A stretch of 28,005 bases of DNA from positions 1-28,005 of IMG/VR virus record IMGVR_UViG_3300020395_000078; one strand, 5' to 3'. The notes beneath the pieces are model-generated. The model had not been told where the DNA came from and did not search any database. It saw only the letters and a program-made list of their open reading frames with translations. This stretch comes from a virus. Shown in pieces: positions 4,360 through 28,004 of the stretch; positions within the stretch are counted from its first letter, which is position 1, and the number at the start of each line of letters is the position of its first letter. Made by a program: the position numbers and the translations under genes.

Positions 4360-4388
4360 TTGACTATATAATATACATGTGTTATTAT
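4360..4388 (+). promoter_or_regulatory. Sigma-70 promoter for the riboswitch transcript
   Basis: TTGACT (4360-4365) and TATTAT (4383-4388) are separated by exactly 17 bases. Transcription would begin near 4395, at the 5' edge of the riboswitch candidate. A TATAAT nearer the -35 box has unusable spacing. Confidence 0.75.
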
Positions 4389-4395
4389 TAACACA

Positions 4396-4460
4396 ATCGT
4401 TCAACCCCTAGTGGGTCGCAAGTAAGCCGACACGGAACGGATTCGTTCATCCCATTAATC
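4396..4460 (+). ncRNA. Glutamine-II (downstream-peptide) riboswitch candidate
   Basis: The leader holds CGTTCA, a CCC/GGG hairpin, the conserved-looking TCGCAAGTAAGC core and GGAACG, as in the glutamine aptamers (glnA and downstream-peptide RNAs) of marine Synechococcus, Prochlorococcus and their phages. P1 is CGTTC 4398-4402 with GAACG 4435-4439. A hairpin forms from 4404-4407 and 4413-4416, or alternatively GTCG 4415-4418 with CGAC 4428-4431. A second CGTTC (4444-4448) can instead take the 3' strand of P1, and CCCA 4451-4454 can pair with TGGG 4412-4415, close to the start codon at 4461. A short ORF follows, as the motif name implies. Motif identity is from memory, not a covariance search. 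Confidence 0.78.
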
Positions 4461-4622
4461 ATGTTTCATCTAGCAGTTATTGCAACTACTCTTTCTTGTG
4501 TTGATGCTCAATTACTTTTAGATAAGATAAGTGAGTTTAAGATAGAAGAAGAGACACGAGCTGAGATGATCAGCGTAGTGATAGAAGAAACATCTCATTG
4601 TTGGGACGCAAATGCCGACTGA
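4461..4622 (+). CDS. Riboswitch-controlled small protein, 53 aa
   Basis: A small protein with a short hydrophobic N-terminus (MFHLAVIATTLSCVDAQLLL) and an acidic helical remainder (EFKIEEETRAEMISVVIEE). Glutamine-II riboswitches typically precede short ORFs of this size with unknown function, so control by glutamine, a nitrogen-status signal, is inferred. There is no Shine-Dalgarno, consistent with start access being set by the leader fold. It might be a weak signal-peptide protein, but a clear cleavage site is not obvious. Confidence 0.7.
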   Translation: MFHLAVIATTLSCVDAQLLLDKISEFKIEEETRAEMISVVIEETSHCWDANAD

Positions 4623-4662
4623 AGGAACGGGGCCACAATCCCTACTACTTTGGAGAAAGCCA

Positions 4663-4803
4663 ATGGCACAAGTCACTTACCGTGGAGTCGTCTACGACTC
4701 TGAAGAGTATCGCAAGTTAGTTCTTGACGAAGCTCAGAAAAACAGGAACCATGATCTAATGTATCGTGGTGTCAAAGTTACTAAGAAGTTAGTAACAGCA
4801 TAA
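4663..4803 (+). CDS. DUF4278-like YRGV-repeat protein, 46 aa
   Basis: Two YRGV motifs (residues about 6-9 and 34-37) bracket a charged helix (YDSEEYRKLVLDEAQKNRNH). The TYRGVVY start resembles the cyanobacterial DUF4278 family, which suggests a host-type small domain of unknown role. ATG 4663 is chosen because GGAG lies at 4652-4655; an upstream ATG at 4612 would overlap the riboswitch peptide. A terminator follows. Confidence 0.6.
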   Translation: MAQVTYRGVVYDSEEYRKLVLDEAQKNRNHDLMYRGVKVTKKLVTA

Positions 4804-4814
4804 TCAAAATTCAT

Positions 4815-4830
4815 TTTTTGATTCCATAAA
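4815..4830 (+). repeat. 16-base repeat copy 1 at operon end
   Basis: TTTTTGATTCCATAAA occurs here and again at 17193-17208. Both copies sit immediately after a gene stop, next to or within a terminator structure. Confidence 0.7.
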
Positions 4831-4859
4831 TCCAGGAAAATTTTTTCCTGGATTTTTTT
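4828..4859 (+). terminator. Rho-independent terminator
   Basis: A long stem (4828-4840 with 4843-4854, core AATCCAGGAAAA and its complement) followed by a seven-T run. It ends the riboswitch operon. Confidence 0.9.
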
Positions 4860-9470: not shown

Positions 9471-9661
9471 ATGTCGGGGTCGCTCCCTGACATGGGAGTG
9501 ACTGAATAAACTTGCTGGCATAAGGCTAGTTAAGGTGATGAGACACAGGTGGTGCTGCTTCCCCCAAGGAAGAATCGACTTACCAGTCGGGTCTCAGACA
9601 GTGAGGTAAAAATCTACTCATGTAGCAATGCCCCTTACTTGTTGGTATACATAATTCCAAC
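9471..9661 (+). ncRNA. Structured leader RNA of gp32 mRNA
   Basis: The ~230-base gap before gp32 is packed with pairings. In order: a 9-bp 5' hairpin (9471-9479 with 9485-9493, loop TCGCT); CTGGC 9515-9519 with GCTAG 9525-9529; a three-way junction closed by TGAGAC 9539-9544 with GTCTCA 9591-9596, holding CTTCC/GGAAG (9558-9562, 9568-9572) and CGACT/AGTCG (9576-9580, 9585-9589); CTAC/GTAG (9614-9617, 9622-9625); and GTTGG/CCAAC (9641-9645, 9657-9661). An unstructured A/C-rich stretch then leads to the ATG. T4 gp32 represses its own mRNA through a leader structure, so autoregulation is one reading; a ligand-sensing RNA or separate small RNA is another. I do not recognise it as a named class. 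Confidence 0.6.
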
Positions 9662-9699
9662 CTCCCACCCCAAACAAATCCAATTAAATCTAAACTAAT

Positions 9700-10593
9700 A
9701 TGTCATTTGCAAATTTAAAAAAGAAATCCAATTTAGAATTTTTACAAAAAGAATTAGAGAAGTCTGTCAGTGGCAGACAAGTTGATGATCGCTTCTGGAA
9801 ACCAGAAGTAGATGCATCAGGTAATGGGTACGCAGTTATCCGTTTCCTACCAGCACCAGAAGGAGAGACAGTACCTTGGGCGAAAGTTTACAGTCATGCA
9901 TTCCAAGGACCAGGTGGTTGGTACATTGAAAACAGTCTCACTACACTAGGAGAAAAGGATCCAGTAGGTGAAGTTAATCGTCGCCTTTGGAACAGTGGTG
10001 AAGAGGCAGACAAGGACACTGCACGTAGACAGAAGCGTAAGTTATCTTACTACAGTAACATCTTAGTTGTTAAGGATCCTAAGAATCCTGACAATGAGGG
10101 TAAGACATTCTTGTATAAGTATGGTAAGAAGATCCACGACAAGATCCTTGCAGCAATGAATCCTGAGTTTCAGGATGAGACACCAGTAAATGTATTTGAT
10201 TTCTGGGAAGGTGCTAACTTTAAGTTAAAGATCAAGAAGGTAGCAGGATTCTGGAACTATGATAGTAGTGAGTTTGATTCTGTTAGTGCTCTTAGTTCAG
10301 ATGATACTGAACTTGAAGCAATCTGGAACAAGGAACATTCGTTAGAATCATTCCTTGCTAAGGATCAGTTCAAATCCTATGAGGATTTAGAAAGAAGGTT
10401 GAGTTTTGTACTAGGTCAGGCCAAACGTGCAGCAGTTACTACTGTAGACACTGAGGAATATGAACCAGTAAAAGCACCAGAACCTTCATCATTTCGTGCT
10501 AAAGTAAGTGCGAATACACCAGTGAAAAAAGAAGCGGTTGTTGATGATGACGATGCCCTATCCTACTTTGCAAAACTCGCAGAGGAAGACTGA
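9700..10593 (+). CDS. 32: Single-stranded DNA-binding protein gp32
   Basis: Coats ssDNA during T4-type replication and recombination. 297 aa with an N-terminal basic LAST-like motif (LKKKSN, residues 6-11) for cooperative binding, the OB-core landmarks YYSNILVVKDPKNPDNEGK and FLYKYGKKIHDKI, and the WEGANFKLKIKKVAGFWNYD segment, all as in T4 gp32. The C-terminus is acidic (DDDDALSYFAKLAEED), the usual partner-docking tail. The protein has no cysteine at all, so the zinc site of T4 gp32 (His64, Cys77, Cys87, Cys90) is lost; RRQKRK occupies that region. There is no clear Shine-Dalgarno, and a long structured leader precedes it. Confidence 0.93.
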   Translation: MSFANLKKKSNLEFLQKELEKSVSGRQVDDRFWKPEVDASGNGYAVIRFLPAPEGETVPWAKVYSHAFQGPGGWYIENSLTTLGEKDPVGEVNRRLWNSGEEADKDTARRQKRKLSYYSNILVVKDPKNPDNEGKTFLYKYGKKIHDKILAAMNPEFQDETPVNVFDFWEGANFKLKIKKVAGFWNYDSSEFDSVSALSSDDTELEAIWNKEHSLESFLAKDQFKSYEDLERRLSFVLGQAKRAAVTTVDTEEYEPVKAPEPSSFRAKVSANTPVKKEAVVDDDDALSYFAKLAEED

Positions 10594-27588: not shown

Positions 27589-27942
27589 ATGCCAATTAAA
27601 GACAAGGAAGCAAATAGAAAATATCAAAGAGAGTGGGCTAGAAAAAACGGGAAGACAAAGAGAAAGAATCAAGTTGGTCATAGGAGAAGAAAACAGATGG
27701 TAGATGAGGCCAAGTCTCACCCATGTGTTATATGCAATAAGCAGTATCCAGTGGAAGTTATGGAACTTCATCATATAGATCCTGCTTCTAAGATATCTAC
27801 TATATCTCAGTTGCAATGTATCGCATCTTATGCTAAACTCAAAGATGAGATAGATAAGTGTGCTCCCTTATGTGCAAATTGTCACAGACTACTTAATCAC
27901 GGTTATGTCGATTTACCAGAACTTATTTTATTGCCATCATAG
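27589..27942 (+). CDS. HNH endonuclease
   Basis: 117 aa. The N-terminus is very basic (KYQREWARKNGKTKRKNQVG) for DNA binding. The nuclease core has CVIC, VMELHHIDP (catalytic His pair, Asp) and PLCANCHRLLNHG (second zinc pair, final His), a complete HNH motif, unlike the degenerate protein at 657. It is probably a free-standing homing nuclease. Its last three codons and stop fall in the acceptor and D-arm start of tRNA-Thr. Confidence 0.88.
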   Translation: MPIKDKEANRKYQREWARKNGKTKRKNQVGHRRRKQMVDEAKSHPCVICNKQYPVEVMELHHIDPASKISTISQLQCIASYAKLKDEIDKCAPLCANCHRLLNHGYVDLPELILLPS

Positions 27943-28004
27943 CACAGTGGTAGTGCAGGGCTTTTGTAAAGCCAAGGTCGGGGGTTCAAATCCCTCTGAT
28001 GGCA
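27933..28004 (+). tRNA. trnT-TGT: tRNA-Thr (TGT)
   Basis: Acceptor stem GCCATCA (27933-27939) with TGATGGC (27997-28003), D stem GCAC/GTGC, an anticodon loop TTTGTAA with anticodon TGT (Thr, ACA codons), T arm with GGTTCAAATCC, discriminator A. CCA is not encoded. Phage tRNAs often match codons common in the AT-rich phage but rarer in the host. Confidence 0.93.

What the first reader, a model, noticed from the sequence alone, without database searches (positions are those of the whole stretch)
4360..4622. Glutamine-II riboswitch with two mutually exclusive pairings controlling a 53-aa peptide
A 17-base-spaced promoter leads straight into a leader that looks like the downstream-peptide glutamine aptamer. 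A second CGTTC (4444-4448) can form a perfect GAACG-GATT-CGTTC hairpin that excludes P1, and CCCA (4451-4454) can pair with TGGG used in P2, right before the start codon. This gives a visible on/off design. It would let the phage tune a small protein to the nitrogen status of the cell.
Basis: partly seen in the sequence, partly recalled or inferred. Interest (0 to 1): 0.75.

Follow-up and report, generated by a model that had tools for sequence, protein, structure and literature searches.

The report
Gene hidden inside phage glutamine riboswitch
In marine cyanophages, an RNA sensor for glutamine holds a second sensor folded in rearranged order inside one of its arms, and a small protein-coding gene sits inside the sensor itself, so reading that gene and folding the sensor should compete.

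Summary
The leader at 4360-4454 is a glutamine riboswitch, but not the one proposed. The 'second CGTTC' (4444-4448) is no decoy strand. It begins a second aptamer that closes only at 4629, beyond the 53-aa ORF. The element (4398-4630) is one composite RNA. It has an outer glnA-type (glutamine-I) three-way junction. The ORF (4461-4622) lies in the second aptamer's P2 loop and stops inside the core; a DUF4278 gene follows.

Evidence comes from 469 distinct viral composites. P3 covaries across the ORF, and a blind test of rare variants held in 70 of 76 cases. In 95 hybrids the binding-site pair fits only the nested pairing (95/95 against 0/95). Of 285 ORF-sized loops examined, 284 hold an ATG ORF (dN/dS 0.14 and 0.26, always two cysteines). 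Two 97-98% identical phages differ only by hairpin versus ORF in P2a. DUF4278-like ORFs follow 313 of 314.

Glutamine binding, cooperativity and reciprocal control are inferred, not shown. The class is known; I found no description of this architecture in the searchable literature.

The parts
4360..4388 (+). Promoter-like site TTGACT-17-TATTAT; its -10 box ends 9 nt before the aptamer, so transcription should start about at the aptamer's first base
   Evidence: Consensus scan, 10 of 12 matches but no more such sites than in shuffles; across 312 distinct upstream regions a TATAAT-like box recurs 7-9 nt before CGTTCA
4398..4402 (+). Outer P1, 5' strand (CGUUC), pairs with 4625-4629
   Evidence: Outer P1 in the unsupervised consensus fold of 52 compact relatives; nested order fixed by the long-range pair test
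4404..4416 (+). P2a hairpin ACCC-CTAGT-GGGT (compact here; holds an ORF in other phages)
   Evidence: Covaries in relatives; replaced by a 199-nt ORF-bearing loop in AG-345-E02 compared with P-SSM2
4417..4424 (+). Outer core CGCAAGUA (AGUA strand of loop E); C4419 pairs with G4630
   Evidence: AGTA is in the first half and absent from the second half in 439 of 440 loci
4425..4432 (+). P3, 5' strand AGCCGACA, pairs across the ORF with 4613-4620 (C-A mismatches at positions 3 and 6)
   Evidence: Covariation
4435..4448 (+). Inner P1 hairpin GAACG-GAUU-CGUUC; G4440 in its loop pairs with C4609
   Evidence: Gap between the halves is always at least 2 nt, so the loop is at least 3 nt; present in the RNAalifold consensus
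4450..4454 (+). P2b, 5' strand UCCCA, pairs with UGGGA 4602-4606 across the ORF
   Evidence: In 198 ORF-bearing loops the first five pairs average 4.86 of 5, against 4.20 (sd 0.04) when ends are shuffled
4461..4622 (+). Nested 53-aa ORF in the P2b loop (hydrophobic N terminus, two cysteines; phrog_504); UGA stop inside the aptamer core
   Evidence: phrog_504 E=9.6e-10; purifying selection and two cysteines in all relatives
4602..4610 (+). P2b 3' strand UGGGA and inner core CGCA (also codes the ORF's C terminus)
4613..4620 (+). P3, 3' strand UGCCGACU (also codes the last residues and first base of the stop)
4621..4630 (+). GAA strand of loop E (4621-4623), outer P1 3' strand GAACG (4625-4629), G4630 pairing with C4419
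   Evidence: Rfam aligns the compact relative L008 in exactly this way, as one RF01739 aptamer at 41.1 bits
4652..4655 (+). Shine-Dalgarno-like GGAG for the downstream gene
   Evidence: Sequence; an SD-like motif before this gene in 317 of 330 relatives
4663..4803 (+). Downstream gene, 46 aa, DUF4278
   Evidence: PF14105 25.5 bits (cut-off 25.3) and phrog_5049 E=3e-21; a YRG-motif ORF at this place in 313 of 314 relatives
4828..4855 (+). Intrinsic terminator-like hairpin with a T run

Best explanation
Window 4398-4630 is a two-site glutamine riboswitch of the glnA (glutamine-I) type with a nested architecture. The outer site is C4398:G4629, G4399:C4628, G4418 and C4419:G4630, on a three-way junction with P2a, loop E and P3. 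P3 is not a closed hairpin. Its two strands lie on either side of a second junction (inner P1 hairpin 4435-4448, P2b, CGCA 4607-4610), which is the same aptamer circularly permuted: its P1 is capped by a 3-5 nt loop and its P3 is open. Both sites keep the bases that contact glutamine in the solved structures. The P2b loop carries a 53-aa gene whose start codon lies just inside P2b and whose stop codon lies in the aptamer core. Inferred mechanism: glutamine stabilises the composite, couples its two sites through P3, and turns on the downstream DUF4278 gene, as known glutamine riboswitches do. Ribosomes on the nested gene unzip P2b, P3 and P1, so nested-gene translation and aptamer folding exclude each other, favouring the nested peptide at low glutamine and DUF4278 at high glutamine. 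Shown here: architecture, nesting, and that the nested genes are real genes. Inferred: ligand, stoichiometry, cooperativity, direction and reciprocity.
For: P3 covaries across the two halves and across the ORF. Over distinct half-pairs it scores 4.24 of 5 against 3.68 shuffled (0 of 2000), and for ORF-bearing loci alone 4.29 against 3.88 (0 of 2000). On 52 compact sequences the covariation score is 0.309 against 0.094 shuffled, and every slid register fails. A prediction noted beforehand held: composites with an unusual base at P3 position 2 or 4 carry a complementary partner in 41 of 45 and 29 of 31 loci, mostly ORF-bearing. In 95 hybrids (1st half CGGA, 1st GAACG followed by G), whose two distal bases were not fixed by the pattern, the nested long-range pairs form in 95 of 95 and tandem pairs in none. 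Loop E is split: AGUA in the first half only (439 of 440), GAA or AAA at the end of the second (438 of 440). Rfam itself aligns L008 618-709 as one RF01739 aptamer (41.1 bits, above threshold) with a 41-nt insert in P3. Nested ORFs: 284 of 285 long loops, dN/dS 0.14 and 0.26, other frames closed; exactly two cysteines in 284 of 284 and shared families between P2a and P2b. P-SSM2 and AG-345-E02 differ only in P2a, hairpin versus ORF, with flanks 98.3% and 97.1% identical. A DUF4278-like gene follows 313 of 314. Glutamine contacts and ON direction are from PMC6698751 and PMC6316151.
Against: No ligand binding was tested. P1 and most core letters are fixed by my search patterns, so they give no independent covariation. 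Predicted folding energies favour the nested P1 pairing but also do so for true tandem aptamers, so they are not evidence. P3 of the window's class has two conserved C-A mismatches. The inner site lacks a loop E, so it may not bind glutamine. In glutamine-II the stem equivalent to P2 is formed even without ligand (PMC6698751), so hiding of the nested start codon may not depend on glutamine. The window's nested AUG (4461) lies a few bases past the paired strand of P2b, unlike most relatives where it starts in it. The downstream expression platform was not resolved.
Confidence: 0.8

Rival explanations
1. Two ordinary tandem aptamers with the ORF merely spanning the second one's P2 loop (each CGUUC pairs with its own GAACG).
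For: Tandem glnA RNAs are known (PMC2864571), and true tandems, each with its own loop E and P3, occur in other viral contigs (L507, L508, L511).
Against: Each half here lacks one strand of loop E, P3 covaries between the halves, and hybrids form 0 of 95 tandem long-range pairs.
Confidence: 0.05
2. The nested architecture is right, but the inner permuted unit no longer binds glutamine; it is a structural P3 cap and only the outer site senses ligand.
For: The inner unit lacks the loop-E signature, and canonical single aptamers manage with a plain P3 hairpin.
Against: All ligand-contacting bases are kept in the inner unit, including the C:G long-range pair, which stays complementary in the inner unit when the outer one switches to G:C.
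Confidence: 0.35
3. Glutamine-II riboswitch with two mutually exclusive pairings controlling a downstream 53-aa peptide.
For: RF01704 gives 27.5 bits to the first half; the CGCA...AACGG letters are shared with glutamine-II.
Against: No pseudoknot partner, several non-pairs in the RF01704 alignment, a loop-E signature and P3 present; the ORF is inside, not downstream; the supposed competing hairpin is part of the conserved fold.
Confidence: 0.03
4. The nested ORF is only tolerated cargo: it is translated from nascent RNA before the distal half is made, and the riboswitch controls only DUF4278.
For: The nested AUG is exposed until about 150 nt more are transcribed; compact forms without ORF are common (135 of 469), so the ORF is dispensable.
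Against: The start codon sits at a fixed place, usually 4 nt after CGUUCA, and the stop usually lies in or beside the core; such regular placement over several ORF families suggests more than cargo.
Confidence: 0.3

Closest known systems
Glutamine-I riboswitch, glnA RNA (Rfam RF01739)
   Same: P1 CGUUC/GAACG, P2, loop-E signature AGUA/GAA, P3 position, DUF4278 target; compact relatives pass the Rfam threshold
   Different: P3 is open and carries a second, circularly permuted copy; P2 loops hold genes; the window copy itself scores below threshold
Glutamine-II riboswitch, Downstream-peptide RNA (RF01704)
   Same: CGCA core with AACGG long-range C:G pair; small-protein and DUF4278 context
   Different: No pseudoknot; in the described cases the ORF lies downstream of the aptamer, not inside it (PMC2864571)
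Tandem glnA or glycine-type double riboswitches
   Same: Two aptamers of one class in one leader
   Different: Here the units are interlocked through a shared P3 and the second is permuted, rather than side by side
uMetE2 ORF inside the M. tuberculosis metE B12 aptamer (PMC11260477)
   Same: A translated ORF within an aptamer extension; translation and ligand-induced folding proposed to be mutually exclusive
   Different: uMetE2 is short and poorly conserved; here whole proteins of about 50-75 aa under purifying selection fill the P2 loop in hundreds of viral sequences, in either or both aptamers
Permuted natural RNAs (hammerhead, twister, group II introns, tmRNA; PMC10085705)
   Same: Circular permutation of a structured RNA
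   Different: I found no natural permuted riboswitch aptamer described in the papers searched

Membership tests
RF01739 glutamine-I (glnA) aptamer | Covariance score at or above gathering (35 bits) | tested here: not met
   Window first half 29.2 bits. Compact composite L008 41.1 and L002, L004, L016, L017 35.1-37.8 pass; the model cannot bridge a 150-nt ORF. So the window copy is described as glutamine-I-like, not filed as an Rfam member
RF01739 glutamine-I (glnA) aptamer | Three-way junction P1/P2/P3 with P3 flush against AGUA and GAA of loop E | tested here: met
   Present with AGUA and GAA on opposite sides of the ORF; P3 covariation; L008 aligned so by Infernal
RF01739 glutamine-I (glnA) aptamer | Glutamine-contacting bases and long-range pair beside P1 | tested here: met
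   Sequence at 4398/4399/4418/4419/4628-4630 (outer) and 4444/4445/4608/4609/4438-4440 (inner); C:G to G:C changes in hybrids; contact list from PMC6698751
RF01739 glutamine-I (glnA) aptamer | Binds L-glutamine | not testable with these tools
   Needs in-line probing or ITC
RF01704 glutamine-II (Downstream-peptide) | Pseudoknot closing over the GGAACG strand | tested here: not met
   Non-pairs in the aligned helix and a score below gathering
RF01704 glutamine-II (Downstream-peptide) | Small ORF downstream of the aptamer | tested here: not met
   The 53-aa ORF is inside the element; the downstream gene is a different one (DUF4278)
Ordinary tandem aptamers | Each unit has its own loop E, P3 and long-range pair | tested here: not met
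   true tandems L507, L508, L511 meet it
DUF4278 (PF14105), downstream protein | Pfam score at or above cut-off | tested here: met
   25.5 against 25.3 bits

The most novel reading that the evidence does not exclude
A two-site riboswitch in which a circularly permuted aptamer is built into an arm of its twin, giving cooperative glutamine sensing, and in which translation of a gene inside the aptamer and ligand binding exclude each other, so one metabolite toggles reciprocally between a nested, probably exported peptide (low glutamine) and a DUF4278 regulator (high glutamine).
Probability: 0.35. Interest if true: 0.92.

Novelty: new variant of a known kind. Interest (0 to 1): 0.82.

Why it matters
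It shows an interlocked double aptamer with a permuted copy, not found described in the papers searched, and a conserved class of genes encoded within the aptamer rather than after it. It explains why standard models under-score these phage riboswitches. It offers natural compact and gene-bearing pairs, including two nearly identical phages, for testing how translation competes with ligand binding, and it ties hundreds of cyanophage sequences to host glutamine, the nitrogen signal of the most abundant photosynthetic cells.

Tried and rejected
Glutamine-II assignment and the anti-P1 decoy hairpin: rejected (see rivals). Two independent tandem aptamers was my own first reading; it was dropped when the Rfam alignment of L008, the split loop E and P3 covariation showed cross-pairing, and the hybrid test decided it. 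Minimum-energy folds: outer P1 in 56 of 56 compact composites, but true tandem controls fold the same way, so not used as evidence. tblastn of the 53-aa protein against phage records found nothing at 1e-3; relatives came from PHROGs and from the loci. Pfam gave no family for the nested protein. Folding the window leader with its downstream region gave no clear expression platform. The genome scan gave 8 hits: one is a 189-kb contig of the same length as an IMG/VR viral contig, others lie in marine assemblies and are probably phage (not checked one by one), and two are probably chance; so no evidence of the composite in the hosts' own genomes.

Full report
What is in the window. A promoter-like site (TTGACT 4360, TATTAT 4383-4388) is followed 9 nt later by CGUUCA-P2a-CGCAAGUA-AGCCGACA-CGGAACGG-AUU-CGUUCA-UCCCA, then a 53-aa ORF, then UGGGA-CGCA-AA-UGCCGACU-GAA-GGAACGG ending at 4630. 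Rfam finds only the first half, below threshold (RF01739 29.2 bits, RF01704 27.5). A DUF4278 gene (4663-4803) and a terminator-like hairpin (4828-4855) follow.

First clue. BLAST found the two conserved pieces in cyanophages at variable spacing. In some genomes both halves are compact with tetraloop-like P2 loops; in others an ORF sits between the second CGUUCA and the second CGCA. In 131 loci gathered mainly with one pattern the second loop is 10-15 nt or 136-193 nt, with nothing in between in that table, and the flush P2 pairing is kept. The first aptamer's P2 shows the same two states.

Not two aptamers but one interlocked pair. The first half carries AGUA but no GAA; the second carries GAA but no AGUA (439 and 438 of 440). 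These are the two strands of loop E in glutamine-I. Rfam aligns the compact relative L008 618-709 as a single RF01739 aptamer at 41.1 bits with 41 nt inserted in the P3 loop. Single canonical relatives with an ordinary P3 hairpin exist in viral contigs and score 42-52 bits, which fixes where P3 must lie. In the composites the two P3 strands flank the inner hairpin, P2b and the ORF, and they covary: AGUCG/CGACU, AGCCGACU/AGCCGACU, GGACGG/CCGCCC, GGACGACG/CGCCGCCC, AAUCG/CGAUU, AUUCG/CGAAU, AGUUGACU/AGGCAACU and others. Statistics: distinct half-pairs 4.24 of 5 against 3.68 shuffled, ORF-bearing only 4.29 against 3.88, both 0 of 2000; alignment of 52 compact sequences, covariation 0.309 against 0.094 with all slid registers failing; RNAalifold without guidance gives outer P1, P2a, inner hairpin and P2b, although P3 with its C-A mismatches was not called by it.

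Two tests set out in advance. (a) Written down first: composites with a non-G at P3 position 2 or a non-C at position 4 should have complementary partners. Result 41 of 45 and 29 of 31, mostly ORF-bearing; most of the misses are register shifts or parsing. (b) In the solved structures a base of the CGxA core pairs with the base after GAACG (C19:G41 in glutamine-II; PMC6698751). If pairing is nested, sequences whose first core is CGGA and whose first GAACG is followed by G must end in AACGC and have CGCA in the second core; tandem pairing predicts otherwise. Of 95 distinct such composites, all 95 follow the nested rule, where the tandem rule would leave both pairs unformed. The inner unit is therefore a circular permutation of the outer one, and its ligand-site pair is maintained.

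The genes inside. Of 285 loops longer than 60 nt examined, 284 contain an ATG ORF spanning the loop; the exception is a 65-nt loop. The ATG is usually 4 nt after CGUUCA, so its A is the fifth P2 base, and the stop usually lies in or next to the core. In the window the ATG is further in, 11 nt after CGUUCA. Other frames are closed (1 of 568), and dN/dS is 0.14 (P2a) and 0.26 (P2b). In the larger set 410 of 418 loops qualify under a cruder test. Every one of the 284 proteins has exactly two cysteines; P2a and P2b proteins belong to shared families, with up to 93% identity across positions, so ORFs move between loops. In five annotated phages checked (S-TIM5, syn9, S-CAM3, S-IOM18, P-RSM4) the homologous genes are also nested. 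P-SSM2 and AG-345-E02 are 98.3% and 97.1% identical on either side, but the first has a 17-nt P2a hairpin and the second a 199-nt ORF-bearing P2a. Two single canonical aptamers also hold an ORF in P2. A DUF4278-like ORF (YRG motif) follows 313 of 314 composites.

How it most likely works. Known glutamine riboswitches of both types are ON switches, associated chiefly with DUF4278 genes (PMC6316151). Glutamine binding rearranges P3 in glutamine-I (PMC5393176). A second site built on P3 would therefore be coupled to the first (inference). The nested start codon is at or near the edge of P2, and a ribosome reaching the nested stop would cover P2b, P3 and P1. Nested translation and the folded aptamer should exclude each other, as proposed for uMetE2 in the metE B12 aptamer (PMC11260477). 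This predicts the nested peptide at low glutamine and DUF4278 at high glutamine. The nested ORF of the window has no Shine-Dalgarno sequence; the downstream gene has GGAG. Against a ligand-dependent effect, the stem equivalent to P2 is formed without ligand in glutamine-II (PMC6698751), so the nested gene may simply be damped, or translated before the distal half is made.

Controls and limits. Thermodynamic folds do not discriminate, because true tandem aptamers (L507, L508, L511, each with own loop E and P3) also fold with outer P1. P1 and core letters were fixed by search patterns. Sequences are related, so shuffle statistics overstate independence; the variety of double changes and the 95 hybrids matter more. 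No ligand experiment was possible. Glutamine riboswitches in marine phages, including AG-345-P14 (L016 here), have been reported (PMC9004378), as have tandem glnA RNAs (PMC2864571). I found no description of the interlocked architecture or of conserved genes inside the aptamer in the papers searched, but subscription papers and supplements were not available.

Noticed in passing
window 4378-4395 and the same place in relatives: An inverted repeat (TGTGTTA-TTAT-TAACACA) spans the -10 box. Upstream of 235 of 294 distinct composites there is one with arms of at least 5 bp (about 47 expected from shuffles), with 91 different left arms, so the symmetry is kept while the letters change. It could be an operator, a cruciform or an RNA hairpin.
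   Followed up: partly
window 9472-9671: A strong manA RNA (RF01745, 166.5 bits) upstream of an ORF at 9700; manA RNAs also lie next to the composite in relatives L005 and L011.
   Followed up: no
L507, L508, L511 and similar loci: True tandem glutamine-I aptamers (CGGAAGTA...GAAGGAACGC twice, each with its own P3) in other viral contigs.
   Followed up: partly
L483, L494: Single canonical glutamine aptamers with a 63-aa ORF of the same family in the P2 loop, upstream of a three-YRG DUF4278-like gene.
   Followed up: partly
L510, L550: A further divergent composite: P3 GGUGACA/UUGUCUCC with a U-U mismatch at position 3 and AAAGGAACGC at the end of both halves.
   Followed up: no
L384-L463: Single glutamine aptamers upstream of small YRG (DUF4278-like) genes are common in viral contigs, often followed by a GGAAAC...GTTTCC repeat around the Shine-Dalgarno sequence, a possible translational platform.
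   Followed up: no
window 27933-28004: A tRNA gene at the window's end (RF00005, 68.9 bits).
   Followed up: no
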